DNA of 64,000 nt from Halichondria panicea (Eukaryota > Porifera > Demospongiae > Suberitida > Halichondriidae), in the NCBI RefSeq assembly GCF_963675165.1, contig NC_087383.1, positions 2,510,979 through 2,574,978 on the forward strand, read 5' to 3'. The first letter of the stretch is position 1; the number at the start of each line of letters is the position of its first letter. The notes beneath the pieces are model-generated. The model searched no databases and was not told where the DNA came from. It worked only from the letters and a program-made list of their open reading frames with translations. This document shows positions 4,776 through 61,337 of the stretch, piece by piece. The position numbers were made by a program, and so were the translations under genes.

Positions 4776-5812
4776 CCTCAGAAACAGACATGCAAATTCG
4801 TTGTCTAAGGACATAATTATTGCAGTGCTTATAACTATGGCTAATACAAGGGTGCTCAGTTAAAGTCGACCATACATACTTGATCCATATTATACATGTA
4901 CCCTGGGAGCAGTACAATAAGTCAAGAGCTCATAGTAAAAAAGAGAGAGTATCGAACGCATCGCTATCTTGCATCAGATATATTCGGAAAGTAACGTGAC
5001 ACCCTGTCTGAAACACGTCATCAATTAAATTGATCAGTTACAAAGCAGGAAGTTACGCTACTTTCCAAATACATCTTATGCTACGTTGGATACTCTCTCT
5101 CTCTTATTATGGGACTCTTGTTATTAGCGGCCTCTCAAAAAATTGGCTAAGAATAATTACATGTACACAGCTGTAGGCACACACTTGCCCAACCCACTCA
5201 CCAGAGAGGACACCTTCGAGGTTAGGTAAATTCTGACCTTTTAACGTCGTCGCATCCTAAATGGAGGTAAATGTAGGCACACCCTAGGCCCTAGTACACT
5301 AGAAATACGTTTTTAAGCGGCTAGAAATCGAGGCAAGTATAGACTGAGTGGAGTTACATGTACCTCCAATTAGATGAGACCCTCTAAATAATGGACACCA
5401 GGTCTTCAACATGATTTTCAACTTCCAAAAGAAGCGACCTCTGGCTTCGTAATTATTAAAATGTACTGCTTTAATTAAAGGTCTTACGGTAATCACATTT
5501 CTTACTTGAATACGTCGGGTTAATTACTGACAGGGCAGCATTCTCAGCCTCAAACTAACTGTGCAAAGGAAAAGAACAGAAAACATGATCCACGACCTTA
5601 CAAGGTAACGTAAACCGAGAGATGCATGAACCAGACAATCATCTATGGCTAATAAATTGACTCACCATCTTTCCAGCCGGAGAATGCTGTAATACTTTAG
5701 CAATGGAGCCAGGTTTTGCCTCTAGCTCTAGCTCTGTACTGCATGTACTAGTTTATACTAGCTAGCTGTGCGGTATGTGAAAATCAATGTCTTTGGTGGG
5801 TGTGGTGGTAAA
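4776..5812. other. Non-coding spacer with an imperfect long inverted repeat
   Basis: No supported gene. Sequences at about 4931-4998 and 5047-5118 are imperfect reverse complements (for example GAGAGAGTATC against GATACTCTCTCTC, and GGAAAGTAACG against CGCTACTTTCC), making a foldback of about 190 bp that looks like a MITE. A degenerate copy of exon delta of the unassigned gene lies near 5515-5565. The small minus ORF at 5299-5496 has no counterpart in the paralogous units. Confidence 0.5.
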
Positions 5813-5870
5813 TGCAAAAAGTGGGTGTATCTCAGTCTTAGATATCTGAGATACACCCACTTTTTTTGCA
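5813..5870. repeat. Perfect hairpin upstream of NLR1
   Basis: Arms 5813-5835 and 5846-5870 (core GTGGGTGTATCTCAG / CTGAGATACACCCAC) are reverse complements apart from two extra T, around a 10-nt loop. The same hairpin precedes NLR3 (33951-34007) and NLR4 (48812-48868) but not NLR2. It lies about 70-130 bp before the NLR start codon. It is probably a tiny MITE or a folded regulatory element. Confidence 0.85.
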
Positions 5871-5942
5871 AGTCATGCAAAAACAACACACCCAATATAT
5901 TTCAGAGAGAGCTAGCTGCAAGGCACAGATTTATTTGCTGAA

Positions 5943-6580
5943 ATGGCCACTAAAGAGCAGAACCAAGGTATAAAGACTGTCATGTTTCCTATAAAGGATA
6001 AACCCAATGATTGCTAAAGCATAAAACCCTCATTGGTGATTGCTAACCTTGTGTGCTTGCTATCTATTTTCAGAGCTCACAATTGACGATCTGAAGACAG
6101 AAATGAAACTGACTGATGAGCAGCTCAATACAGCAATACAGGAACCAGATCTACCCGAGTTAGCAGCATGTTTCGATAACACTGATGATTATCTTGAAAA
6201 GCTGGAGCTGTCAATGGAGCTGCCCTCTATCAACTTCTGAATACAAACAATTCCCTCGAATGTCTTAATTTGTCTGGTAACACATTGACTAACTGTCGTC
6301 ACATTGCTGCTGGACTTGCAGCCAATAAGACTCTGAGAAGATTGGACTTGAGTAACTGTAAACTGACTGATCAGAGTATCGAGGAGCTATCAACTGGACT
6401 GATCAACAAGATTGAAACACTGCACATTTATGATGGAACAGAAGATGGAATGAAGACGCTTGCCAGACATCTAACTGACACTATTGGTGATACCCGACCA
6501 CCTAATTAATATTCTGTATCGAGACAGTATTCAGGGATGCTAACAAAGAGAGGAAGAGAAATGGACTGCCTGAGATTTAA
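5943..6580 (+). pseudogene. NLR1: DEATH-NACHT-LRR gene with NACHT deleted
   Basis: Exon 1 (5943-5967, MATKEQNQ) and the start of exon 2 (6074 on, ELTIDDLKTEMKLTDEQ) match the intact paralogues, and both splice sites are present. At 'gagctgtc' near 6212 the sequence jumps straight into the LRR region. Compared with NLR2, bases equivalent to 19148-21429 (about 2.3 kb: half of DEATH, all of NACHT and the first LRRs) are missing. The junction is out of frame, so the product would be about 63 residues with half a DEATH fold. The LRR remainder (6250-6580) reads in another frame and has a further 17-bp deletion near 6474. Upstream hairpin and leader are kept, so it could still be transcribed. Confidence 0.85.
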
Positions 6581-6840
6581 TGTGGTTGCATTCTTACCAT
6601 GATTTTAATTACTTTTGACAATGGATTTTATTTTCTGCCATAATTATATCACATTATAATAAATGACAATTTGAGAAAAGTAGCAAAGTACTATAATAAT
6701 ATATAGTATATTATGTTGGAACATTAGGTCGTTAATAACGTGTCAATAGTACATGCAGATGATATAAATAATTCATGCACTGCTGTGAATAGTCAATGAA
6801 TACATGCACTTTGCTAATGGAAAATCCAATTTAACGCTCT
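6581..6840. other. AT-rich NLR1 3' flank
   Basis: Non-coding. It matches the 3' flank of the other units up to the conserved exon alpha block. An AATAAA at about 6658 could serve NLR1 polyadenylation. Confidence 0.5.
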
Positions 6841-9703: not shown

Positions 9704-10408
9704 CACATAAGCAGTGCATGTACATAGTGGGACCATAGGCAGTGCATGTACATAGTGGGGCCATAGGCAGTGCATGTACATAGTGGGACCATAGGCAGTG
9801 CATGTACATAGTGGGACCATAGGCAGTGCATGTACATAGTGGGACCATAAGCAGTGCATGTACATAGTGGGACCATAAGCAGTGCATGTACATAGTGGGA
9901 CCATAAGCAGTGCATGTACATAGTGGGACCAAAGGCAGTGCATGTACATAGTGCAGTGCATGTACATAGCGGGACCATAGGCAGTGCATGTACATAGTGG
10001 GACCATAGGCAGTGCATGTACATAGTGGGACCATAAGCAGTGCATGTACATAGTGGGACCATAAGCAGTGCATGTACATAGTGGGACCATAAGCAGTGCA
10101 TGTACATAGTGGGACCATAGGCAGTGCATGTACATAGTGCAGTGCATGTACATAGTAGGACCACATGTACATAGTGGGACCATAGGCAGTGCATGTACAT
10201 AGTGGGACCATAGGCAGTGCATGTACATAGTGGGACCATAAGCAGTGCATGTACATAGTGGGACCATAGGCAGTGCATGTACATAGTGGGACCATAGGCA
10301 GTGCATGTACATAGTGGGACCATAGGCAGTGCATGTACATAGTGGGACCATAGGCAGTGCATGTACATAGTGGGACCATAGGCAGTGCATGTACATAGTG
10401 GGACCATA
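9704..10408. repeat. 28-bp minisatellite array 3, left part
   Basis: About 25 copies of the 28-bp unit, very homogeneous, with three short deletions (around 9953, 10137 and 10155). It is interrupted at 10408 by the inserted element 10409-11761 and resumes at 11762, so 9704-12317 was one array. Confidence 0.97.
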
Positions 10409-11761: not shown

Positions 11762-12317
11762 TATAGGCAGTGCGTGTACATAGTGGGACCATAGGCAGTG
11801 CATGTACACAGTGGGACCATAGGCAGTGCATGTACATAGTGGGACCATAGGCAGTGCATGTACATAGTGGGACCATAGGCAGTGCGTGTACATAGAGGGA
11901 CCATAGGCAGTGCGTGTACATAGTGGGACCATAGGCAGTGCATGTACACAGTGGGACCATAGGCAGTGCATGTACACAGTGGGACCACAGGCAGTGCATG
12001 TACACAGTGGGACCACAGGCAGTGCGTGTACACAGTGGGACCACAGGCAGTGCGTGTACACAGTGGGACCACAGGCAGTGCGTGTACACAGTGGGACCAT
12101 AGGCAGTGCGTGTACACAGTGGGACCATAGGCAGTGCGTGTACACAGTGGGACCATAGGCAGTGCGTGTACACAGTGGGACCATAGGCAGTGTGTGTACA
12201 CAGTGGGACCATAGGCAGTGCGTGTACACAGCGGGACCATAGGCAGTGCATGTACACAGTGGGACCATAAGCAGTGCATGTACATAGTGGGACCATAAGC
12301 AGTGCATGTACATAGTG
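11762..12317. repeat. 28-bp minisatellite array 3, right part
   Basis: About 20 units. Variants differ from the left part: most units at 11990-12240 carry cgtgtacacag and several carry ccacaggc. These changes remove the TAG that normally closes the plus strand, so here both strands happen to be open. It ends at 12317 in 'catagtgaaaatg', joining the block also found after arrays at 1835 and 61337. Confidence 0.95.
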
Positions 12318-18054: not shown

Positions 18055-18714
18055 TTATTTGTAAAACGTAGAGCAGAGGTTTTTATGTAATATGTTGGCA
18101 ACCCTGCGCTTTCTTCTGGGTTTCTCACCCGTATCGTTTGAGGTACCCCCGAACGAGTCGGGTAAGAACTCAGCTAGTTCGATAAATTCCTCATTTTCCG
18201 ATTTTTTAGATAGTTTGTCGGGAATGGGGATGGCATTCTGGCCTACATTGACCGTATATGGAATAATGCTTGGTATCGTCGGTAATGTGGGGAGGCTCAT
18301 GCGGGTTTGAGTACGGGGGGCACTAGTGGATACGAGGGGAACATGTGCTAGTGAGGTACTTGACATACCTGCCGTTCCGGTGCTGACAACAGGGCCTGAG
18401 GTGGGACTCCGTGGGGTACCCGAGCCGGAAGCAGAGATGGTTGGGATCGAGGGTGGGACTGATGGTGAGACTGATGAGGGGACGGCTGTGGGGTGGTGTT
18501 GTTGGACTGCTGCCTGAATCCGCTGGTCCATTGCGGTGATGATCGTTGGTAACACCGCGCCGAGGGCTGCCTGGACAGAATTGGCAATCATGGTGTTGAA
18601 AGTTGTCGGAGTTGTCGTCGGGTTGGTGGAACTGATGGGCGGTGTTCCAGTTGAGGATGTGCTCGAGGAGGTAGTGGTCATCTTCATATAGAGAATTATA
18701 GGATAGATCAGCAA
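18055..18714 (-). CDS. S/T/P-rich ORF with retroelement-like C-terminal motif, copy 1
   Basis: A 219-codon ORF; a start at MKMTTTSSS, ten codons into the ORF, is as plausible as the first ATG. Residues 12-140 are low-complexity S/T/P. The end carries NAIPIPDKLSKKSENEEFIE, then LAEFLPDSF and a basic KPRRKRR. From memory this 'P-x-L-x-x-K...E-F-I/V...E-x-L-P' motif followed by a basic stretch is common just before the body of retrotransposon-type polyproteins in sponges and cnidarians, which would make this a truncated mobile-element ORF (inference). Its stop overlaps an AATAAA. It lies 45 bp upstream of the EFR3-like ATG on the same strand, at the same place in units B and C. Confidence 0.45.
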   Translation of the reverse strand: MLIYPIILYMKMTTTSSSTSSTGTPPISSTNPTTTPTTFNTMIANSVQAALGAVLPTIITAMDQRIQAAVQQHHPTAVPSSVSPSVPPSIPTISASGSGTPRSPTSGPVVSTGTAGMSSTSLAHVPLVSTSAPRTQTRMSLPTLPTIPSIIPYTVNVGQNAIPIPDKLSKKSENEEFIELAEFLPDSFGGTSNDTGEKPRRKRRVANILHKNLCSTFYK

Positions 18715-18876: not shown

Positions 18877-21825
18877 ATGGCCACTAAAGAGCAGAACCAA
18901 GGTATAAAGACTGTCATGTTTCCTATAAAGGATAAACCCAATGATTGCTAAAGCATAAAACTCTCATTGGTGATTGCTAACCTTGTGTGCTTGCTTATCT
19001 ATTCTCAGAGCTCACAATTGACGATCTGAAGACAGAAATGAAACTGACTGATGAGCAGCTCAATACAGCAATAAAGGAACCAGATCTACCCGAGTTAGCA
19101 GCATGTTTCGATAACACTGATGATTATCTTGAAAAGCTGGAGCTGTCGCCTGGACAGAAAACTGACGTCAGCGAAGTGAAGGCTAAAACACGTCTAAACC
19201 GCACTCAAGCCGGAATAAAACTTGCCCTAGAATACTGGCAGAACAAGAACCAACTACAAGCCACCTTCCAAGCTCTGCTACTCATCATACTCTCCCTGCT
19301 CAAAGGAGACGTTGCTGTTCAAGTGTGCAAGTACTTGTCTGACAAATGTGAGTCTGTTATGTGAGAGTGTGGTCATTGTGGTACCATACGTTGTGGGAGT
19401 GATTGCAACCAAATAAGGGACTTTCAACTTAATTGCTATTGTTACACATACAATTCTCTATTTACTATCACCAGGAATGGTACTCACCTATTGTTTTGTT
19501 TCTCCAGACTCCACCACCTCGTGTCCCCACTCTCAAGAGAGGGTCCTGCTGAACCACAAGCTGTCCTCGTACAGGGACTACCTACAAAGTCGCTACAGAG
19601 AACCAGACTCCACATCAGCCACACAATGGCCTCCCGTCTCAACAAACAAAGTCTTTAAACTGGCCATGATTCAGAAAGAGAAAATACAGAGAGGAAAAAT
19701 CGACGATGAATTTGTTAAACTAACAATCACAGGAAAAATTGACGATATTTTACTTAAAAAAACTCCGGTTAACTTGACGAACATTTTCTCTGAGATTGGA
19801 GATAGAAGACACTTTGTGTTGATTGAAGGAGCTCCCGGCTCTGGCAAGAGCACCCTTGCTCTACACATTTGTCAGGAGTGGGCAAAGGGGAAACTGTTCC
19901 AAGAATTCGATATTGCAATCCTTGTCAGACTGAGAGATCCCCTCGTTAGAGAAGCCATTACAATTTCTGACTTACTTCCCTGCACAAACAAAGCGATGGC
20001 TAATGAAATAGAGACTGCAATTATGTCATTGTACGGCAAAGGTGTACTGTGGGTGCTGGACGGATGGGACGAACTTTCTTCTGACCTCCCTAGAGACTCA
20101 ATCATCAACAAACTAATTCGACCAGGCACGTCACAAGAACGTCCGCTACACAAATCCACCATGATTATAACATCTCGACCATCATCTTCGGCTGAGCTCC
20201 ACCCACTAGTCTCGTCCAGGGTGGAAGTGTTGGGGTTCAATCCACATGAACTAGAACAGTATTTCACTGAGTGTCTGAAAGGTGACTCACAAGCTGTGCA
20301 GACTCTACTGGAGAGAATTCGAGAGAACCCAGTGGTAGAAGGTAGCTGCTACCTCCCCCTCAATGCTTCCATTGTCGTTAATTGCTTCCTTTCTGACAAC
20401 CACTCCCTCCCAACATCCAACCACGGGATATTCACATCAATTGTCCAGAGCTCTCTCAAGAGATACCTCCAGGAGAAGTTGGGGAAGACCACTCCAGTGG
20501 GAGACATCACATCCCCAGACTCACTGCCCTCGGAAATCAGAATGCAGACCGTACAAATGTGTCAACTTGCATATCATGGGATCGAAAAAAACAAAGCGAC
20601 ATTTACTGACAGTGATTTGGCCGCTCTTTGCATTACGAAGGACATTTCAAACGTTGGATTATTACAAACTGTTCCCAGTATCATTAGCGATGGTCATTTG
20701 GTTTACTACTGCTTTCTCCACCTGTCTATTCAAGAGCTACTGGCAGCAATCCACATCTCTCTCATGTCTCCCAAGCAACAAATCTCTGTATTCCAGAAGC
20801 TGTTTGGGAATCCTCGATTCAGTGCAGTCTTCCAGTTTTATGCTGGTATCACCAAACTGAGTACAAGTAGACCAATCCTCAGCAAGCTACCTCGATTCTT
20901 GTGTCCAGTTCCAGCCACTGTTTTTGATCTGGTCAGAAAGGTTGTCAAAACTGAGAAAGAGAAGTATGGTGAGCCGAAGCCCCTTTTGTTGTCCCTCATC
21001 AATTGTTTGTACGAAGCTGAAGACTCGCAACTGTGTGTGTTTGTGGCTAATCTTCTTAATCACAATCTAAATCTTGATAGCACTACAATGAATCCTATCA
21101 ACTGCCTCTCTGTTGGATATTTCGTATCAGCTTGTTCCAACACCAGTAATGGATTCACACTTCGCCTCAGAAGTTGCTCTATTAGTGAACAAGGCTGCAA
21201 ATTTCTGGCACGAGGACTCTCCAAGTGTCCCAACTCTAATAATGATATTCCTACAGAAGGGATACACATCGCTGAGATTATCGAGAACACTATTTCAATA
21301 TCTGAATTGGATTTGTTTAATAATGCCATTGGTAACAGTGGACTTAGCACACTCTGTGAGGCCTTCTCAGCGAACATATCATTAAAGCGCCTGCACCTGA
21401 CCAAATGCTCACTAACAATATCAGACGACAATGGAGCTGCCCTCTATCAACTTCTGAATACAAACAATTCCCTCGAACATCTTAATTTGTCTGGTAACAC
21501 AGTGACTAGCTGTCGTCACATTGCTGCTGGACTTGCAGTCAATAAGACTCTGAGAACATTGGGATTGGGTAACTGTGAACTGACTGATCAGAGTATCGAG
21601 GAACTATCAACTGGACTGATCAACAAGATTGAAACACTGTTCATTTATGGTAATGACTCAATAACAGAAGATGGAATGAAGACGCTTGCCAGACATCTAA
21701 CCACCCACTGCTCTGAACTGACACGATTGTTGATACCCGACCACCTAAGATCCTGTATCGAGACAGTATTCAGGGACACTAACAAAGAGAGGAAGAGAAA
21801 TGGACTACCCGAGATTGATGTGTGA
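18877..21825 (+). CDS. NLR2: DEATH-NACHT-LRR receptor, intact
   Basis: Join 18877-18901, 19009-19347, 19508-21825: 893 codons, both introns GT/AG with GTATAA and GTGAGT donors. Exon 1 encodes MATKEQNQ; exon 2 a six-helix DEATH-type fold (residues 9-121, ending FQALLLIILSLL); exon 3 a NACHT ATPase with Walker A GAPGSGKS (229-236), Walker B LWVLDGWDE (302-310) and sensor-like IITSRPSS, then helical NACHT-associated regions, then about 6 LRRs (650-880) with NSLEHLNLSGN-type repeats. NLRs of this layout are cytoplasmic sensors that oligomerise on ligand binding; sponge NLRs are presumed to detect microbes. The ATG upstream of 19508 in intron 2 is not used. It faces the EFR3-like exon 1 head to head and lacks the hairpin found before its sisters. 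No lesion seen. Confidence 0.93.
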
Positions 21826-33950: not shown

Positions 33951-34007
33951 TGCAAAAGTGGGTGTATCTCAGTCTTAGATATCTGAGATACACCCACTTT
34001 TTTTGCA
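33951..34007. repeat. Perfect hairpin upstream of NLR3
   Basis: Same sequence as at 5813-5870: arms around TCTTAGATAT, 19 bp fully paired plus T-tract slippage. It ends 76 bp before the NLR3 ATG. Confidence 0.85.
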
Positions 34008-34082: not shown

Positions 34083-36964
34083 ATGGCCACTAAAGAGCAG
34101 AACCAAGGTATAAAGACTGTCATGTTTCCTATAAAGGATAAACCCAATGATTGCTAAAGCATAAAACCCTCATTGGTGATTGCTAACCTTGTGTGCTTGC
34201 TATCTATTTCAGAGCTCACAATTGACGATCTGAAGACAGAAATGAAACTGACTGATGAGCAGCTCAATACAGCAATAAAGGAACCAGATCTACCCGAGTT
34301 AGCAGCATGTTTCGACAATGTTCACAAAGGCTATCTTGAAAAATTGGAGCTCTCACCTGGAGAGCAAACTGACGTGAGGACTAGAGCATATGTAGATGGC
34401 ACTCTGGCAGGAATGTTGCTGGCTTTGAAATTCTGGATTCTGACCAACGGACAAGACGCCACTTTCCAAGCTCTGCTACTCATCATACTCTCCCTGCTCA
34501 AAGAAGACGTTGCTGTTCGAGTGTGCAAGTACTTGTCTGACAAATGTGAGTCTGTCATGTGAGAGTGCATGTGGTCATTGTGGTACCATACGTTGTGGGA
34601 GTGATTGCAACCAAATAAGGGACTTTCAACTTAATTGCTATTGTTACACATACAATTCTCTATTAACTATCACCAGGAATGGTACTCACCTATTGTTTTG
34701 TTTCCCCAGACTCCACCACCTCGTGTCCCCCCTCCCGAGAGAGGGTCCTGCTGAACCACAAGCTGTCCTCGTACAGGGACTACCTACAAAGTCGCTACAG
34801 AGCACGAGTATCCACATCAGCCATACAATGGCCTCCTGTTCCAACAAACAAAGTCTTCAAACTGGCAATGATTCAGAAGGAGAAAATACAGAGAGGAAGA
34901 ATCGACGATGAATTTGTTAGGCTATCAATCACAGGAAAAATCGACGATATTTTACTTCAAAAAACTCCGGTTAACTTGACTAACATTTTCTCTGAGATTG
35001 GAAATAGACGAAACTTTGTGTTGATTGAAGGAGCTCCCGGCTCTGGCAAGAGCACCCTTGCTCTACACATCTGTCAGGAGTGGGCAGAGGGAAAACTGTT
35101 CCAAGAGTTCGATATTGCAATCCTCGTGAGACTGAGAGATCCACTTGTTAGAGAAGCCAAGAAAATAGAAGACCTTCTCCCTTGTAGGAAATCAACACAC
35201 GCAAGCCAGATTGGAGATGAAATTTTAGAAACTGATGGCAAAGGTGTACTGTGGGTGCTGGACGGGTGGGACGAGCTTCCTTCTGACCTCCATGGAGACT
35301 CGATCATCACCAAACTAGTTGAACCAGGCTTTGCACAAGAAAGTCCGCTACATAAATCCGCCGTCATTGTAACATCTCGCCCGTCGTCTTCAGCTAAGCT
35401 CCACCCACGTGTATCGTCCAGGGTGGAAGTGTTGGGGTTCACTCCACATCAACTAGAACAGTATTTTACCGAGTGTCTGAATGGTGACTCACAAGCTGTG
35501 CAGACTCTACTGGAGAGAATTCGAGAGAACCCTGTGGTAGAAGGTAGCTGCTACCTCCCCCTCAATGCTTCCATTGTCGTTAATTGCTTTCTTTCTGATA
35601 ACCACTCACTCCCCACATCCAACCACGGGATATTCATATCAGTTGTCCAAAGCTCTCTCAAGAGATACCTCCAGGATAGGTTGGGGAAGACCACTCCAGT
35701 GGGAGACATCACATCCCCAGACTCACTGCCCTCGGAAATCAGAACAGAGACCGTACAAATGTGTCAACTTGCATATCATGGGATCGAAAAAAACAAAGCA
35801 ACATTTACTGACAATGATTTGGCCGCTCTTCGCATTACGAAGGAAATTTCATACGTTGGACTATTACAAACTGTTCCCAGTATCATTAGCGATGGTCATC
35901 TGGTTTACTACTGTTTTCTCCACCTGTCTATTCAAGAGCTACTAGCAGCAATCCACATCTCTCTCATGTCTCCCAAGCAACAAATTTCTGTATTCCAGAA
36001 GCTGTTTGGTAGTCCTCGATTCAGTGCAGTCTTCCAGTTTTATGCTGGTATCACCAAACTGAGTACTAGTAGACCAATCCTCAGTTTGCTACCTCGATTC
36101 TTGTGTCCAGTTCCAGCCACTGTTTTTGATCTGGTCAGAAAGGTTGTCAAAAAGGAGAAAGAGAAAGAGTATGGTGAGCCGAAGCCCCTTTTGTTGTCCC
36201 TCATCAATTGTTTGTACGAAGCTGAAGACTCGTCACTGTGTGTGTTTGTGGCTAATCTTCTTAATCACAATCTAAATCTTAATCACACTACAATGAATCC
36301 TATTGACTGCCTTTCTGTTGGATATTTCGCATCAGTTTGCTCCAAACCCAGTAATGGAGGATTCACACTTAGCCTCAAAATGTGCTCTATTGGTGACCAA
36401 GGCTGCAAATTTCTGGCCCGAGGACTCTCCAAGTGTCCCAACTCTAATAATGATATTCCTACAGGAGGGATACACATCGCTGAGATTATCGAGAACACTA
36501 GTTCAATATCTGGATTGAATTTACCTTTTAATGCCATTGGCAACAGTGGACTTAGCACACTCTGTGAGGCCTTGTCAACGAACACATCATTAAAGACACT
36601 GAACCTGCGCAATTGCTCACTAACAATATCAGACGACAATGGAGCTGACCTCTATCAACTTCTAAATACAAACAATTCCCTCGAACATCTTGATTTGTCA
36701 TTTAACACAGTGACTAGCTGTCGTCACATTGCTGCTGGACTTGCAGTCAATAAGACTCTGAGAAGATTGCACTTGGATGACTGTGAACTGACTGATCAGA
36801 GTATCGAGGAGCTATCAACTGGACTGATCAACAAGATTGAAACACTGGAGATATGGGATAATTACTCAATAACAGAAGATGGAATGAAGACGCTTGCCAG
36901 ACATCTAACCACCCACTGCTCTGAACTGACACAATTGTACATACCCTTCCACCTAAGATCCTGA
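34083..36964 (+). CDS. NLR3: DEATH-NACHT-LRR receptor, C-terminus truncated
   Basis: Join 34083-34107, 34213-34545, 34710-36964: 870 codons. Walker A GAPGSGKS at 227-234 and LWVLDGWDE at 300-308. The DEATH exon differs from NLR2 in one patch (SPGEQTDVRTRAYVDGTLAG) and NACHT in another (KKIEDLLPCRKSTHAS), while flanking sequence is the same. The LRR block is the most distinct of the three intact genes (NHTTMNPID, KPSNGGFTLSLKMC, LHLDDCELTD). TGT ATC in NLR2/NLR4 reads TGA TTC here (36962-36964), removing the last 23 residues (IETVFRD...LPEI), which remain readable downstream. The lost tail lies after the last LRR, so the product may still be stable. Near-identical to NLR4 up to about 36280. 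Confidence 0.92.
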
Positions 36965-47985: not shown

Positions 47986-48645
47986 TTATTTGTAAAACGT
48001 AGAGCAGAGGTTTTTATGTAATATGTTGGCAACCCTGCGCTTTCTTCTGGGTTTCTCACCCGTATCGTTTGAGGTACCCCCGAACGAGTCGGGTAAGAAC
48101 TCAGCTAGTTCGATAAATTCCCCTTTTTCCGATTTTTTAGATAGTTTGTCGGGAATGGGGATGGCATTCTGGCCTACATTGACCGTATATGGAATAATGC
48201 TTGGTATCGTCGGTAATGTGGGGAGGCTCATGCGGATTTGAGTACGGGGGGCACTAGTGGATACGAGGGGAACATGTGCTAGTGAGGTACTTGACATACC
48301 TGCCGTTCCGGTGCTGACAACAGGGCCTGAGGTGGGACTCCGTGGGGTACCCGAGCCGGAAGCAGAGATGGTTGGGATCGAGGGTGGGACTGATGGTGAG
48401 ACTGATGAGGGGCCGGCTGTGGGGCTGTGTTGTTGGACTGCTGCCTGAATCCGCTGGTCCATTGCGGTGATGATCGTTGGTAACACCGCGCCGAGGGCTG
48501 CCTGGACAGAATTGGCAATCATGGTGTTGAGAGTTGTCGGAGTTGTCGTCGGGTTGGTGGAACTGATCGGCGGTGTTCCAGTTGAGGATGTGCTCGAGGA
48601 GGTAGTGGTCATCTTCTTATAGAGAATTACAGGATAGATCAGCAA
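47986..48645 (-). CDS. S/T/P-rich ORF with retroelement-like motif, copy 3 (intact)
   Basis: 219 codons, colinear with 18055-18714, with few replacements (for example HHPTAVPS to HSPTAGPS, KSENEEF to KSEKGEF). Its stop again overlaps AATAAA, 45 bp before the EFR3-like ATG. Two of three copies stay open with mostly single-residue changes, despite the neighbouring EFR3-like genes being broken. Confidence 0.45.
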   Translation of the reverse strand: MLIYPVILYKKMTTTSSSTSSTGTPPISSTNPTTTPTTLNTMIANSVQAALGAVLPTIITAMDQRIQAAVQQHSPTAGPSSVSPSVPPSIPTISASGSGTPRSPTSGPVVSTGTAGMSSTSLAHVPLVSTSAPRTQIRMSLPTLPTIPSIIPYTVNVGQNAIPIPDKLSKKSEKGEFIELAEFLPDSFGGTSNDTGEKPRRKRRVANILHKNLCSTFYK

Positions 48646-48811
48646 GGGAAATCTTGAGAATTATAGGGAAGAGAAGTTTTCTAATTTGTTTGTTCTTTCA
48701 CTGACTGCCTGACCACGTGTTCCTTGCGCATGCCAGTACCTAGTCTCATGAATCATCCGCCGTTCTTTTGGAGGTTTTGTCTCAAATGTCTTTGGTGGGT
48801 GTGGTATTAAA

Positions 48812-48868
48812 TGCAAAAGTGGGTGTATCTCAGTCTTAGATATCTGAGATACACCCACTTTTTTTGCA
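48812..48868. repeat. Perfect hairpin upstream of NLR4
   Basis: Identical to 33951-34007 in sequence and in distance (76 bp) to the NLR ATG. Confidence 0.85.
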
Positions 48869-48943
48869 AGTCATGCAAAAACAACAACACACCCAATATA
48901 TTTCAGAGAGAGCTAGCTGCAAGACACAGATTTATTTGCTGGA

Positions 48944-51894
48944 ATGGCCACTAAAGAGCAGAACCAAGGTATAAAGACTGTCATGTTTCCTATAAAGGAT
49001 AAACCCAATGATTGCTAAAGCATAAAACCCTCATTGGTGATTGCTAACCTTGTGTGCTTGCTATCTATTTCAGAGCTCACAATTGACGATCTGAAGACAG
49101 AAATGAAACTGACTGATGAGCAGCTCAATACAGCAATAAAGGAACCAGATCTACCCGAGTTAGCAGCATGTTTCGACAATGTTCACAAAGGCTATCTTGA
49201 AAAATTGGAGCTCTCACCTGGAGAGCAAACTGACGTGAGGACTAGAGCATATGTAGATGGCACTCTGGCAGGAATGTTGCTGGCTTTGAAATTCTGGATT
49301 CTGACCAACGGACAAGACGCCACTTTCCAAGCTCTGCTACTCATCATACTCTCCCTGCTCAAAGAAGACGTTGCTGTTCGAGTGTGCAAGTACTTGTCTG
49401 ACAAATGTGAGTCTGTCATGTGAGAGTGCATGTGGTCATTGTGGTACCATACGTTGTGGGAGTGATTGCAACCAAATAAGGGACTTTCAACTTAATTGCT
49501 ATTGTTACACATACAATTCTCTATTAACTATCACCAGGAATGGTACTCACCTATTGTTTTGTTTCCCCAGACTCCACCACCTCGTGTCCCCCCTCCCGAG
49601 AGAGGGTCCTGCTGAACCACAAGCTGTCCTCGTACAGGGACTACCTACAAAGTCGCTACAGAGCACGAGTATCCACATCAGCCATACAATGGCCTCCTGT
49701 TCCAACAAACAAAGTCTTCAAACTGGCAATGATTCAGAAGGAGAAAATACAGAGAGGAAGAATCGACGATGAATTTGTTAGGCTATCAATCACAGGAAAA
49801 ATCGACGATATTTTACTTCAAAAAACTCCGGTTAACTTGACTAACATTTTCTCTGAGATTGGAAATAGACGAAACTTTGTGTTGATTGAAGGAGCTCCCG
49901 GCTCTGGCAAGAGCACCCTTGCTCTACACATCTGTCAGGAGTGGGCAGAGGGAAAACTGTTCCAAGAGTTCGATATTGCAATCCTCGTGAGACTGAGAGA
50001 TCCACTTGTTAGAGAAGCCAAGAAAATAGAAGACCTTCTCCCTTGTAGGAAATCAACACACGCAAGCCAGATTGGAGATGAAATTTTAGAAACTGATGGC
50101 AAAGGTGTACTGTGGGTGCTGGACGGGTGGGACGAGCTTCCTTCTGACCTCCATGGAGACTCGATCATCACCAAACTAGTTGAACCAGGCTTTGCACAAG
50201 AAAGTCCGCTACATAAATCCGCCGTCATTGTAACATCTCGCCCGTCGTCTTCAGCTAAGCTCCACCCACGTGTATCGTCCAGGGTGGAAGTGTTGGGGTT
50301 CACTCCACATCAACTAGAACAGTATTTTACCGAGTGTCTGAATGGTGACTCACAAGCTGTGCAGACTCTACTGGAGAGAATTCGAGAGAACCCTGTGGTA
50401 GAAGGTAGCTGCTACCTCCCCCTCAATGCTTCCATTGTCGTTAATTGCTTTCTTTCTGATAACCACTCACTCCCCACATCCAACCACGGGATATTCATAT
50501 CAGTTGTCCAAAGCTCTCTCAAGAGATACCTCCAGGATAGGTTGGGGAAGACCACTCCAGTGGGAGACATCACATCCCCAGACTCACTGCCCTCGGAAAT
50601 CAGAACAGAGACCGTACAAATGTGTCAACTTGCATATCATGGGATCGAAAAAAACAAAGCAACATTTACTGACAATGATTTGGCCGCTCTTCGCATTACG
50701 AAGGAAATTTCATACGTTGGACTATTACAAACTGTTCCCAGTATCATTAGCAATGGTCATCTGGTTTACTACTGTTTTCTCCACCTGTCTATTCAAGAGC
50801 TACTAGCAGCAATCCACATCTCTCTCATGTCTCCCAAGCAACAAATTTCTGTATTCCAGAAGCTGTTTGGTAGTCCTCGATTCAGTGCAGTCTTCCAGTT
50901 TTATGCTGGTATCACCAAACTGAGTACTAGTAGACCAATCCTCAGTTTGCTACCTCGATTCTTGTGTCCAGTTCCAGCCACTGTTTTTGATCTGGTCAGA
51001 AAGGTTGTCAAAAAGGAGAAAGAGAAAGAGTATGGTGAGCCGAAGCCCCTTTTGTTGTCCCTCATCAATTGTTTGTACGAAGCTGAAGACTCGTCACTGT
51101 GTGTGTTTGTGGCTAATCTTCTTAATCACAATCTAAATCTTGATAGCACTACAATGAATCCTATCGACTGCCTCTCTGTTGGATATTTCGTATCAGCTTG
51201 TTCCAACACCAGTAATGGATTCACACTGCACCTCAACAATTGCTCTATTAGTGAACAAGGCTGCAAATTTCTTGCCCGAGGACTCTCCAAGTGTCCCAAC
51301 TCTAATAATGATATTCCTACAGCAGGGATACACATCGCTAAGATTATCGAGAACACTAGTTCAATATCTGAATTGGATTTGTCTAATAATGCCATTGGTA
51401 ACAGTGGGCTTAGCACACTCTGTGAGGTCTTGTCAACTAACACATCATTAAAGATCCTGGACCTGTGCAGGTGCTCACTAACAATATCAGACGACAATGG
51501 AGCTGCCCTCTATCAACTTCTAAATACAAACAATTCCCTCGAACATCTTAATTTGTCTGGTAACACAGTGACTAGCTGTCGTCACATTGCTGCTGGACTT
51601 GCAGTCAATAAGACTCTGAGAACATTGTCCTTGGGTTCCTGTAAACTGACTGATCAGAGTATCGAGGAGCTATCAACTGGACTGATCAACAATATTGAAG
51701 GACTGTACATTGGGGGTAATGACTCAATAACAGAAGATGGAATGAAGCCGCTTGCCAGACATCTAACCACCCACTGCTCTGAACTGACACTATTGGTGAT
51801 ACCCGGCCGCCTAAGATCCTGTATCGAGACAGTATTCAGGGACGCTAACAAAGAGAGGAAGAGAAATGGACTACCTGAGATTTATGTGGGGTAA
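48944..51894 (+). CDS. NLR4: DEATH-NACHT-LRR receptor, intact and mosaic
   Basis: Join 48944-48968, 49074-49406, 49571-51894: 893 codons. It is offset from NLR3 by a constant 14861 bp from exon 1 to about 51140, with no indel and only one amino-acid change (ISNGHL for ISDGHL). From 'aatctt' at about 51141 it follows NLR2 instead (DSTTMNPI, FVSACSNTSNGFTL) through the stop and about 50 bp beyond, then returns to NLR3-like flank near 51960. Walker A and B as in NLR3. The LRR exposed positions are its own (LDLCRCSLT, LSLGSCKLTD, LYIGGND). Tail ends GLPEIYVG. Likely a cytoplasmic immune sensor. Confidence 0.93.
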
Positions 51895-52540
51895 TTGTTG
51901 TTTACCCGAGATTAATTATGTTTATTAATTGATTGATTATTAATTGTGTATTCATTAGATTATTAATTTATAATTAATTGATTATTATTAATAATTAATG
52001 TTTAGTTATAATTATATTATGATTATTGTTGTTATTAATTAATTAATAAATGTTAATTAATTTGTTGTGTTATGCATCTAATCTCTATCATTGGTCAATA
52101 TAATTATAGCACATGTACAGATGGTGACGAGTGAATTCAATGCTTCCTACTGACACGGAGAGCATGTCATGCACTAGCTGTATGTATGTAACTGAATACA
52201 CTATTGTAATAATGCTATAATCTCCACCTAGCTAGCCTCCTTCACAGGCTTTCAAGAGAAGTGCGGCATGGGCCGGGATCGAGGCTAATCTCGACATGAT
52301 CTACTTTTGACAACAATTATATTACTAGGACAATTTACAAAACAGTTAGTGCACAGAAGACTAGAAATATGTCGGCACATTACATAACAATTACCTAAAA
52401 ACAAATCAGTTGGAATTGGTCAATATAGCACAGTAATAATGATGGTTTAAATTCAATGCTCCCTACAGTGTCACAGAGAGCACATGCACTGTACGTATAA
52501 AACTGTTAATGAATGTAGTGGAAATCCAATTTAACGCTCT
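51895..52540. other. AT-rich NLR4 3' flank
   Basis: Non-coding. First about 50 bp match the NLR2 flank, the rest the NLR3 flank, including the 55-bp TAGCCTC miniature at 52227-52281 and TTAATTAATAAATG near 52035. Confidence 0.6.
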
Positions 52541-59021: not shown

Positions 59022-59177
59022 TATGGTGAGGATCTGAAATGGAGAATGGGCTGGGACTAGCTTGCATATACCAGCAGATATGATATACATGTAGCTACTA
59101 ACCGTCCACTGAATGTATGGAAAGCAGTGTGAAGGCTGAAGAAATTGTTAGTATGAAGTACTGCAAAGGACATCAAA

Positions 59178-59706
59178 CAGTGCATGTACATAGTGGGACC
59201 ATAAGCAGTGCATGTAAATAGTGGGGCCATAGGCAGTGCATGTAAATAGTGGGGCCATAGGCAGTGCATGTACATAGTGGGACCATAGGCAGTGCATGTA
59301 CATAGTGGGACCATAGGCAGTGCATGTACATAGTGGGACCATAGGCAGTGCACGTACACAGTGGGACCATAGGCAGTGCACGTACACAGTGGGACCATAG
59401 GCAGTGCACGTACACAGTGGGGCCATAGGCAGTGCACGTACACAGTGGGGCCATAGGCAGTGCACGTACACAGTGGGGCCATAGGCAGTGCACGTACATA
59501 GTGGGACCATAGGCAGTGCACGTACATAGTGGGACCATAAGCAGTGCATGTACATAGTGGGACCATATAGGCAGTGCATGTACATAGTGGGACCATAGGC
59601 AGTGCATGTACATAGTGGGACCATAGGCAGTGCATGTACATAGTGGGACCATAAGCAGTGCATGTACATAGTGGGACCATAAGCAGTGCATGTACATAGT
59701 GGGACC
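59178..59706. repeat. 28-bp minisatellite array 5
   Basis: About 19 units. The cacgtacacag and gggcc variants are concentrated at 59345-59490. Right border identical in kind to that of array 1 (followed by 'tttacaggtcaaattg'). Confidence 0.97.
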
Positions 59707-60240: not shown

Positions 60241-60937
60241 ACTCTGCGCAGTTAAGGCCTGGGTCAGGCACTGATAAGATTAATTTTATTCATTGCCTAC
60301 ATTTTATGTAGATGATGTAGATGATGTAGTGTTAATGAGATTCATAATGTTTATTAATGTTATTCATTGCACATGACGTCATAAGGTCAATGTATTTGCT
60401 TAGCTAGCTGCTAGAACTATTGTAGATTATCTTTGGCAACAAATACAGCGGACTTAAACAAGGTAAGAGTAGCTGTTTAGGCCCTCAAAAGATAGAGTTT
60501 GTTGTTATGATTATGTTTCCTTGATGGGAAGTAAAAATGTCCAAAACTTTCTTAGCTATGCTAGCTTCTTTAGCTCTGACAGCCACTCTAGAGGTAGGCT
60601 ATTTTGTGTATCTCAAGAATACAATAACTCTTACTCTTCCCATCAAGGATACTAGTACCTAGCTATGAGATGTTCATCTAGCCTTGTTTTTGAAGCTTGA
60701 TCTTGGCATCTTCAACGCCGTATTTGCAGTTCTCTTTCTGAAAGTGGCATGACGTCATCACCATTTATGGGACTAATTAGCATAATTGAATTAAGCTAAT
60801 CAGAAAAAGAAAACATTGAGCTTCATTTTGGATCATTTTGATGCAGCATACACTGTATACTGCAAATAATACAGCAGTATGAACATAGTGTAAATTTTGG
60901 TGTTGAAATCTGGACCCGGGCCTTAAGTGCGCGGAGT
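60241..60937. other. Unique spacer
   Basis: No supported gene. TTTCCTTGATGGGAAGTAA (60517) and CTTCCCATCAAGGATAC (60636) form an inverted pair about 100 bp apart. No copy elsewhere in the window. Confidence 0.45.
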
Positions 60938-61337
60938 AGGCAGTGCATGTACATAGTGGGGCCATAAGCAGTGCATGTACATAGTGGGGCCATAATTAAG
61001 CAGTGCATGTACATAGTGGAACCATAAGCAGTGCATGTACATAGTGGGACCATAAGCAGTGCATGTACATAGTGGGACCATAAGCAGTGCATGTACATAT
61101 TGGGGCCATAAGCAGTGCATGTACATAGTGGGACCATAAGCAATGCATGTACATAGTGGGACCATAAGCAGTGCATGTACATAGTGGGACCATAAGCAGT
61201 GCATGTACATATTGGGGCCATAAGCAGTGCATGTACATAGTGGGACCATAAGCAGTGCATGTACATAGTGGGACCATAGGCAGTGCATGTACATAGTGGG
61301 ACCACAAGCAGTGCATGTACTTAGTGGGACCATAAGC
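60938..61337. repeat. 28-bp minisatellite array 6
   Basis: About 14 units, mostly the ataagc variant. One unit has an extra 'att' (60993) and two read acatattggg. It ends with 'ccataagctctgtacacaca', the same border as array 2 at 1830. Confidence 0.96.

What the first reader, a model, noticed from the sequence alone, without database searches (positions are those of the whole stretch)
51120..51970. Gene conversion tract swaps the LRR region of NLR4
NLR4 equals NLR3 (one residue different) up to about 51140, then matches NLR2 for about 0.8 kb through the stop codon, then returns to NLR3-like 3' flank near 51960. The exchange covers just the ligand-sensing LRRs, a way to reshuffle specificity.
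Basis: seen in the sequence. Interest (0 to 1): 0.75.

Follow-up and report, generated by a model that had tools for sequence, protein, structure and literature searches.

The report
Immune receptors with reshuffled sensor ends
NLR4 belongs to a cluster of dozens of closely related animal immune-receptor genes in which the body of the gene is often copied almost unchanged while the sensing (leucine-rich repeat) end differs as if redrawn from a family-wide pool, a germline way of making new specificities already known in outline from plants and zebrafish.

Summary
The switch is real, but it is not an NLR2-to-NLR4 transplant. NLR3/NLR4 show 2 mismatches over 48,700-51,100, about 96 to 52,000, then 1 to 52,500. 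NLR2 is 93.6% identical to NLR4's LRR, tied 7th of 56 paralogues; the best is 94.7%. Among 57 paralogues, 38 of 42 pairs with NACHT >=99% have LRR <=96%; 0 of 3 pairs with LRR >=99% have NACHT <=96%. In the closest pair of each of 12 NACHT groups, NACHT divergence is 7% of random pairs' but LRR R3-R7 divergence 98%; 141 of 180 backbone differences are standing family variants, against hypermutation. Hypervariable codons fall on the xLxLxx strand positions (26 of 30). Identity on both sides of the LRR was seen in 5 of 11 groups profiled. Best reading: duplicated scaffolds whose LRR is re-sorted by short exchanges between paralogues (gene conversion, partly perhaps crossing over) under diversifying selection, as in Arabidopsis RPP8 and zebrafish NLR-B30.2. 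No donor cassette was found; scaffold homogenisation remains a live rival, above all for NLR3/NLR4.

The parts
49540..51894 (+). NLR4 large coding exon: NACHT (res 114-267), winged-helix/HD2-like region, LRRs
   Evidence: open 784-aa frame; Pfam NACHT 9.8e-20, LRR_6 9.5e-8, NOD2_WH 5.7e-5 (all above cut-off), NLRC4_HD2 1.2e-5 (below cut-off); best PDB sequence hit NLRP3 4.1e-28
49073..49408 (+). upstream open reading frame shared by the family, probable N-terminal domain exon; two to three sequence types that differ between some NACHT-near-identical genes
   Evidence: found in 56 of 57 genes by tblastn; no Pfam hit; AF2 pLDDT 46.5, uninformative. Splice sites not resolved
48700..51141 (+). scaffold: 5' flank plus NACHT, near-identical in NLR3, NLR4, L003 and others
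   Evidence: 2 mismatches in 2.4 kb NLR3/NLR4; 5 mismatches and 4 indels in 4.9 kb NLR4/L003
51136..51876 (+). LRR cassette (res 533-779), divergent between scaffold-near-identical genes
51370..51387 (+). hypervariable cluster, res 611-616
   Evidence: nonsynonymous diversity per codon, strand from AF2
51454..51471 (+). hypervariable cluster, res 639-644
51544..51561 (+). hypervariable cluster, res 669-674
51622..51645 (+). hypervariable cluster, res 695-702
51700..51723 (+). hypervariable cluster, res 721-728
51790..51816 (+). hypervariable cluster, res 751-759
51277..51459 (+). 183-nt exact match to L019, a gene of another NACHT type (NACHT 91.2%)
   Evidence: on its own within the permuted range (longest run in 60 codon permutations 195 nt)
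51457..51627 (+). 171-nt exact match to L017 (NACHT 91.6%)
   Evidence: on its own within the permuted range
51880..52016 (+). AT-rich tail after the LRR with indels; 3' boundary of the divergent block
52017..52500 (+). 3' flank where identity with NLR3 resumes
34679..36964 (+). NLR3, same scaffold, different LRR; in-frame TGA removes about the last 22 residues
19477..21825 (+). NLR2, another NACHT group (90.6% to NLR4); its own closest scaffold is L022

Best explanation
NLR4 is one of at least 57 long NACHT-LRR genes (56 without an in-frame stop), 56 of them within 2.4 Mb of one contig. Scaffolds (5' flank, NACHT, in part the 3' flank) multiply by recent segmental duplication. Afterwards the LRR block is re-sorted against the rest of the family by repeated, mostly short exchanges between paralogues: gene conversion where both flanks stay near-identical, possibly also unequal crossing over where the 3' flanks are unrelated. 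Diversifying selection favours new residues at the x positions of xLxLxx in each repeat. Shown: near-identical NACHT with random-level LRR divergence in 12 of 12 groups; differences drawn mostly from standing family variation; low linkage within the LRR; hypervariable sites at the predicted strands. Inferred: that the exchange is germline gene conversion with tracts of roughly 80-230 bp, that selection rather than mutation bias drives the hypervariable codons, and that the LRR binds ligand.
For: NACHT >=99% in 42 of 1596 pairs, 38 of them with LRR <=96%. Closest pair per group, 12 of 12 groups: NACHT divergence 0.071 of random pairs, LRR R3-R7 0.98 (hv 1.01, backbone 0.89). Of 180 backbone differences in those pairs 141 have both alleles in other genes; in a hand-picked 9-pair set 90 of 110, where 9.1% of possible point changes would hit a segregating allele. 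Young flanks: L009/L014 4 mismatches in 4.9 kb upstream plus NACHT; L013/L027 99.5% over 2.9 kb upstream and 99.8% over 3.2 kb downstream, with two diverged islands, the upstream exon and the LRR. LRR r2 0.032 at 30-84 bp against 0.151 in NACHT, floor 0.019. Exact LRR runs >=150 nt: 19 against 2.8 permuted (max 12); >=200 nt: 4 against 0 (43 of 57 genes). piN/piS 2.03 in strand windows, 0.55 in the rest of the LRR, 0.36 in codons 1-520. One pair, L049/L052, has LRR 98.2% with NACHT 95.1%, as an LRR transfer would leave.
Against: No 240-nt LRR window at >=99.5% between otherwise diverged genes is seen from +1680 on, and one pair per window at +1440 and +1560, so recent donors are missing. Both-flank identity was seen in 5 of the 11 groups profiled; in the others the 3' flanks are unrelated or clearly diverged, which crossing over explains as well. 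The linkage contrast shrinks at synonymous sites (NACHT 0.071, LRR 0.050 from 7 site pairs, at 30-84 bp) and at backbone sites (0.071 against 0.036), and four-gamete fractions in NACHT are as high as in the LRR, so NACHT is exchanged too. Runs >=100 nt (94) do not exceed the permuted maximum (102). Holding NACHT groups together on the LRR tree is not rejected (p-AU 0.166, 0.242, 0.094, 0.389): the LRR tree is nearly star-like (3 of 41 inner branches starred) and some group signal remains (NLR4's group 6 of 500 shuffles as low; four groups together 1 of 200). For NLR3/NLR4 the outer flanks differ by about 2.3% and the core by 0.1%, which fits scaffold homogenisation. Six of 10 pairs of hypervariable codons two apart show no association (z<3), finer than ordinary tracts make. 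One assembly, no reads.
Confidence: 0.55

Rival explanations
1. Scaffold homogenisation: the LRRs are old and stay put; gene conversion repeatedly overwrites flank and NACHT, and selection for LRR diversity (or its divergence) keeps the LRR out of the tracts.
For: 240-nt windows >=99.5% identical occur in 29-64 pairs across the first 1.56 kb, some between otherwise diverged genes, and fall to 8-3 from +1440. No pair with LRR >=99% and NACHT <=96%. NLR3/NLR4 outer flanks 2.3% against core 0.1%.
Against: L009/L014 and NLR4/L003 are 99.9% identical for 3.3 kb upstream of the gene too, and L013/L027 99.5-99.8% for about 3 kb on both sides, so long tracts would have to stop at the same LRR edges repeatedly. 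LRR stretches are shared between NACHT groups beyond chance at >=150 nt, so LRRs are exchanged too.
Confidence: 0.22
2. Unequal crossing over inside the LRR: each twin pair shares everything upstream and takes LRR end plus 3' flank from another gene.
For: In several NACHT-twin pairs (e.g. L020/L023, L028/L036, L025/L031, L040/L041, NLR2/L030) identity ends near the LRR start and the 3' flanks are unrelated; L009/L014 are 0.1% apart upstream but 1.5% downstream.
Against: NLR3/NLR4, NLR4/L003, L010/L016, L041/L042 and L013/L027 regain near-identity after the LRR, and LRR divergence is random-level inside, not a single switch.
Confidence: 0.1
3. Single conversion tract from NLR2 into NLR4.
For: NLR2 is the closer of the other two window genes in the block, and its similarity runs on into the tail.
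Against: 93.6% only, tied 7th of 56; about 17 NLR3-like and 22 NLR4-only sites in the block.
Confidence: 0.03
4. Targeted mutation of LRR codons after duplication (deaminase-like or retroelement-like).
For: Hypervariable codons vary at positions 1 and 2 far more than 3 (heterozygosity 0.47, 0.42, 0.17), A is among the common alleles at 69 of 74 such polymorphic positions (my tally), and many neighbouring codons assort freely.
Against: Backbone changes rise with the hypervariable ones (ratio 0.89), and 141 of 180 backbone differences are standing variants. L001/L002, L011/L012 and L053/L054 have 0-1 LRR differences, and NLR2/L022 become diverged only from about +2000. The codon-position and A patterns may also follow from selection for polar residues.
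Confidence: 0.05
5. Assembly artefact: collapsed or wrongly joined repeats or haplotypes.
For: Highly repetitive tandem cluster; three pairs near-identical also in the LRR.
Against: The pattern recurs in 12 groups with open frames (one of 57 with a stop) and graded flank divergence; the identical pairs have differently spaced neighbours (coordinates).
Confidence: 0.05

Closest known systems
Arabidopsis RPP8 NLR family (PMC6771003, passages read)
   Same: Intergenic gene conversion concentrated in the LRR, LRR tree mixed while the non-LRR part follows locus, raised Ka:Ks and diversity at the X sites of XXLXLXXXX
   Different: Plant, a few paralogous loci surveyed as population alleles; here dozens of animal loci in one assembly, scaffold twins with random-level LRR
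Zebrafish NLR-B30.2 family (PMC4852459, passages read)
   Same: NACHT homogeneous within groups, recognition module exchanged across groups, positive selection in it
   Different: The exchanged module there is B30.2, which its authors prefer over the LRR as the recognition part; here it is the LRR
Sea urchin Sp185/333 cluster (PMC3091723, passages read)
   Same: Tandem immune genes in segmental duplications, gene conversion proposed, sharp boundaries
   Different: Different protein; boundaries at GA/GAT microsatellites, here an AT-rich tail after the stop
Lamprey VLR assembly (PMC13428168, passages read; otherwise recalled)
   Same: LRR diversity made by gene-conversion-like copying
   Different: Somatic, from incomplete germline cassettes; here open-frame germline genes, nothing somatic shown
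Sponge NLR expansions (PMC12909245: abstract, passages, first part of Discussion)
   Same: Large DEATH/NACHT/LRR families, species-specific
   Different: Its main text has 0 occurrences of 'gene conversion' or 'positive selection'; the organism here is not identified

Membership tests
NLR (NACHT-LRR receptor) | NACHT NTPase domain | tested here: met
   PF05729 E 1e-19 to 2.3e-21, above cut-off in all 3 window proteins
NLR (NACHT-LRR receptor) | C-terminal LRRs of ribonuclease-inhibitor type | tested here: met
   LRR_6 above cut-off in all 3; AF2 model of NLR4's LRR part, pLDDT 75.5, matches ribonuclease inhibitor 2.1e-10 and NLRP3 1.3e-9
NLR (NACHT-LRR receptor) | N-terminal death-fold domain | tested here: inconclusive
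   upstream frame found in 56 of 57 genes but no Pfam hit and unreliable fold
Interlocus gene conversion diversifying a recognition domain | recognition part not following the scaffold | tested here: met
   the LRR tree breaks all 4 tested groups, but the AU test rejects none of them
Interlocus gene conversion diversifying a recognition domain | shared tracts between paralogues beyond chance | tested here: met
   >=150 nt 19 against mean 2.8 (max 12), >=200 nt 4 against 0; not at >=100 nt, 94 against mean 63.5 (max 102) (43 of 57 genes)
Interlocus gene conversion diversifying a recognition domain | flanks on both sides of the exchanged part unchanged (non-crossover) | tested here: inconclusive
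   seen in 5 of 11 groups profiled; unrelated or diverged 3' flank in the rest
Interlocus gene conversion diversifying a recognition domain | identifiable donor | tested here: not met
   0 of 3 LRR >=99% pairs have NACHT <=96%; 1 of 4 at >=98%, L049/L052
Interlocus gene conversion diversifying a recognition domain | excess nonsynonymous diversity at binding positions | tested here: met
   piN/piS 2.03 in strand windows, which I defined after seeing the pattern
Somatic LRR assembly (VLR-like) | rearrangement in immune cells | not testable with these tools
   one assembly, no reads
Diversity-generating retroelement | A-specific changes with other sites invariant | tested here: not met
   backbone and synonymous sites differ too; no search for a reverse transcriptase or template was made

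The most novel reading that the evidence does not exclude
LRR replacement is a directed, one-ended process: copying starts at the AT-rich tail just after the stop codon, runs 5' for a variable distance into the LRR with frequent template switching among paralogues, and ends with end-joining scars in the tail, so that an animal reassembles NLR sensors much as lampreys assemble VLRs, in germline or soma. Pointers (17 hand-chosen LRR-changed pairs that share genes): divergence ends between 9 bp before and 121 bp after the stop in 13 of 17, 9 of these 13 from NLR4's own group, while the 5' edge ranges from +1458 to +2002; 16 of 17 carry tail indels against 1 of 3 LRR-unchanged pairs, that one a single base. 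L017 keeps 278 nt of a second LRR end behind its stop. Against: in 4 of 17 no such 3' edge is found (three have unrelated 3' flanks); with pairs chosen by rule the 5'-to-3' gradient is weak (R1 0.79, R3-R7 0.98; 8 of 12); the tail is low-complexity and may gain indels by slippage.
Probability: 0.1. Interest if true: 0.9.

Novelty: new member of a known kind. Interest (0 to 1): 0.5.

Why it matters
It is a clear animal case in which scaffold twins let one measure how fast a germline repertoire re-sorts its sensors: intergenic DNA dates the duplication and the LRR shows the turnover. It makes testable whether invertebrates without lymphocytes renew recognition by exchange of standing variants, by homogenisation around a protected sensor, or by a directed process.

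Tried and rejected
Whole-cassette transplant into NLR4 from a fetched paralogue: rejected. LRR-only fragments as silent donors: one search scored 150 of 192 candidates (not all matches are listed) and shows many LRR pieces on C7 in short frames, 54-88% identical to NLR4 at protein level, some with stops, plus pieces of about 23 residues at 87-91%; not recent donors of NLR4, and not tested as donors of other genes. Hypermutation: rejected as the main cause. Polarity gradient: looked strong in a hand-picked set of 9 pairs (R1 0.49) and weakened when the closest pair of all 12 groups was taken by rule (R1 0.79), so only suggestive. AU tests on the LRR tree rejected none of the four NACHT clades. 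The exon-2 fold failed. Splice junctions: the obvious donor/acceptor choice, read by eye, would give a stop, so the transcript is unresolved. Organism not identified.

Rows dropped: leave out L002, L012, L054, and the random pairs, leave out the ten long genes and L002, L012, L043, L044 (43 of 57 used); one search leaves out the ten long genes, L043 and L044 (45 of 57). NACHT groups are single-linkage at >=98% among those 43 genes (12 groups, 10 singletons).
Full report
What was checked. The window is C7:2510979-2574978 of a 131-Mb genome in 39 contigs. Three long frames, NLR2 (19477-21825), NLR3 (34679-36964) and NLR4 (49540-51894), encode NACHT plus LRRs. NLR4's best sequence match among solved structures is NLRP3, E 4.1e-28. 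A three-way alignment confirms the switch: from 49,540 to about 51,100 every informative ungapped site but one groups NLR4 with NLR3; from 51,142 sites mostly group it with NLR2 but with many exceptions; beyond about 52,000 mostly again with NLR3. In 100-bp bins NLR3/NLR4 mismatches are 2 in 48,700-51,100, 96 in 51,100-52,000, 1 (plus 2 indels) in 52,000-52,500, and 2-3% in the next stretch on either side.

The family. A protein search gave 57 long genes, 56 on C7 between 1.80 and 4.19 Mb and one on C1; NLR3 alone has an in-frame stop. The count is a lower bound: the tool scored 57 of 331 candidates. I fetched 54 with 800-bp flanks and used the window copies of the other three. Over 1596 pairs LRR and NACHT similarity are only loosely tied (r 0.34). 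NACHT >=99% occurs in 42 pairs and 38 of these have LRR <=96%; the other four are L001/L002, L011/L012, L053/L054 (LRR 99.9-100%) and NLR2/L022 (97.0%). LRR >=99% occurs in 3 pairs, none with NACHT <=96%. At >=98% one of 4 does, L049/L052 (LRR 98.2%, NACHT 95.1%).

How general. I profiled 27 hand-chosen pairs from 11 of 12 NACHT groups. Near-identical NACHT, diverged LRR and near-identical 3' flank are seen in 5 groups: NLR4's, L009/L014, L010/L016 (whose 5' flanks differ), L041/L042 and L013/L027 (with a second diverged island upstream). In the other 6 the 3' flanks are unrelated or clearly diverged. With 2.5 kb more on each side for seven pairs, NLR4/L003 have 5 mismatches and 4 indels from -3,300 to +1,600 but lose identity about 3.3 kb after the start codon on the other side. 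L009/L014 have 4 mismatches upstream and 1.5% downstream. L013/L027 are 99.5% upstream and 99.8% downstream for about 3 kb each. These look like young duplications whose LRR changed afterwards. NLR3/NLR4 themselves have outer flanks 2.3% apart and a core 0.1% apart, which fits later homogenisation of the core. Both processes may act.

Exchange or mutation. In scaffold twins synonymous divergence is raised in the LRR too (NLR3/NLR4: 0 synonymous changes in codons 1-520, 13.5 in 535-779). For the closest pair of each of 12 NACHT groups, repeats 3-7 differ 0.98 times as much as random pairs (hv 1.01, backbone 0.89), NACHT 0.071 times. Of 180 backbone differences 141 have both alleles elsewhere in the family, and 398 of 418 hypervariable ones; 9.1% of possible backbone point changes would hit a segregating allele. 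So LRRs of young twins look like fresh draws from the family pool.

Scale of exchange. Over all biallelic sites linkage in the LRR is near the floor beyond 30 bp (r2 0.032 at 30-84 bp, floor 0.019) and higher in NACHT (0.151). Part of that contrast comes from a linked block in NACHT: at synonymous sites the figures are 0.050 (7 site pairs) and 0.071, at backbone sites 0.036 and 0.071, and four-gamete fractions are as high in NACHT. Long exact LRR runs exceed codon permutations at >=150 nt (19 against 2.8, max 12) and >=200 nt (4 against 0), not at >=100 nt (94 against 63.5, max 102); 88 of those 94 join different NACHT groups, as do 865 of all 903 pairs (my count from the group list). NLR4's LRR contains a 183-nt exact match to L019 and a 171-nt one to L017, abutting at about 51,457; singly these lie within the permuted range (longest 195). 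A painting cost shows clear haplotype structure in R1-R3 (16.9 against 26.1 permuted, z -29) and less in R4-R7 (24.2 against 26.7, z -7.6; 28-codon blocks 24.7). Six of 10 hypervariable codon pairs two apart show no association; recurrent change under selection, besides exchange, is the simplest account.

Selection and place. piN/piS is 0.36 in codons 1-520 and 1.04 in 535-779. An AlphaFold2 model of the LRR part (three window sequences, pLDDT 75.5, poor around residues 583-602) is LRR-like (ribonuclease inhibitor, NLRP3). Of 30 hypervariable codons 26 lie in 64 of 252 residues around the strands (hypergeometric p 4.5e-14, windows defined after seeing the pattern), with mean nonsynonymous difference 0.64, 0.02, 0.94, 0.03, 0.88, 1.05, 0.06 at successive offsets, i.e. 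x-L-x-L-x-x-N/C; piN/piS is 2.03 there and 0.55 elsewhere in the LRR. That these residues face a ligand is inference from known LRR structures.

The 3' edge. After the last LRR codons the sequence is AT-rich and full of indels. LRR-changed twins carry tail indels in 16 of 17 pairs examined (hand-chosen, sharing genes), LRR-unchanged twins in 1 of 3, a single base. L017 has 278 nt of a second LRR end after its stop, 95.7% to L019; of 57 tails only 3 others hit LRR sequence, over 25-37 nt. This fits exchanges that end by joining rather than by homology on the 3' side, but low-complexity DNA also gains indels by slippage, and the 5'-to-3' gradient is weak under rule-based pairing.

Trees. NACHT recovers four tested groups as single clades; the LRR tree breaks all four, but holding them together is not rejected (p-AU 0.166, 0.242, 0.094, 0.389), only 3 of 41 inner LRR branches are starred, and some group signal remains.

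Comparison. The logic (uniform scaffold, exchanged and positively selected recognition part) is that of Arabidopsis RPP8 (PMC6771003) and zebrafish NLR-B30.2 genes (PMC4852459), of both of which I read passages only. The RPP8 authors note that GENECONV underestimates exchange when tracts overlap at high rates, which may be why no clean donor is seen here. In the held library my searches listed no paper whose title or abstract start reports LRR exchange in sponge NLRs; most listed papers were not opened, and most subscription papers are not held, so this is weak. That the genome is a sponge's is only a guess from architecture.

Verdict.

Noticed in passing
49073-49408 and homologues about 470 to 130 bp before the NACHT-exon ATG in 56 of 57 genes: Upstream domain exon in two main types and a third hybrid-looking type; NACHT-near-identical pairs L010/L016, L008/L010, L013/L027 and L024/L032 carry different types, so a second swap island exists on the N-terminal side.
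   Followed up: partly
NLR4 residues 161-185 (50020-50094): Second hypervariable stretch, inside NACHT; NACHT hypervariable codons are tightly linked (mean MI z 14-20 up to 14 codons apart), unlike those of the LRR.
   Followed up: no
L045-L054: Ten long genes (838-857 aa in the frames used) in which LRR stretches match twice, i.e. extra LRR repeats.
   Followed up: no
L001/L002, L011/L012, L053/L054: Gene pairs identical or nearly so including LRR and flanks, about 70-300 kb apart with differently spaced neighbours: very young dispersed duplications.
   Followed up: partly
5786-6585: A 5'-flank piece followed by an LRR-end piece with no NACHT match between, perhaps a deletion remnant; the genome has many similar LRR-only fragments on C7.
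   Followed up: partly
956-1832, 9706-10408, 11763-12317, 59168-59706, 60937-61337: Related 28-bp-period minisatellite arrays under several overlapping minus-strand frames.
   Followed up: no
48815-48863: Imperfect palindrome just upstream of the gene, with matches at 5816-5864 and 33954-34001.
   Followed up: no
47986-48645 (-) and 18055-18714 (-): 219-aa minus-strand frame upstream of NLR4 and of NLR2; no convincing Pfam hit for the 47986 copy, perhaps mobile-element derived.
   Followed up: no
36962-36964: NLR3 carries a premature TGA removing about 22 residues; the frame is otherwise open.
   Followed up: partly
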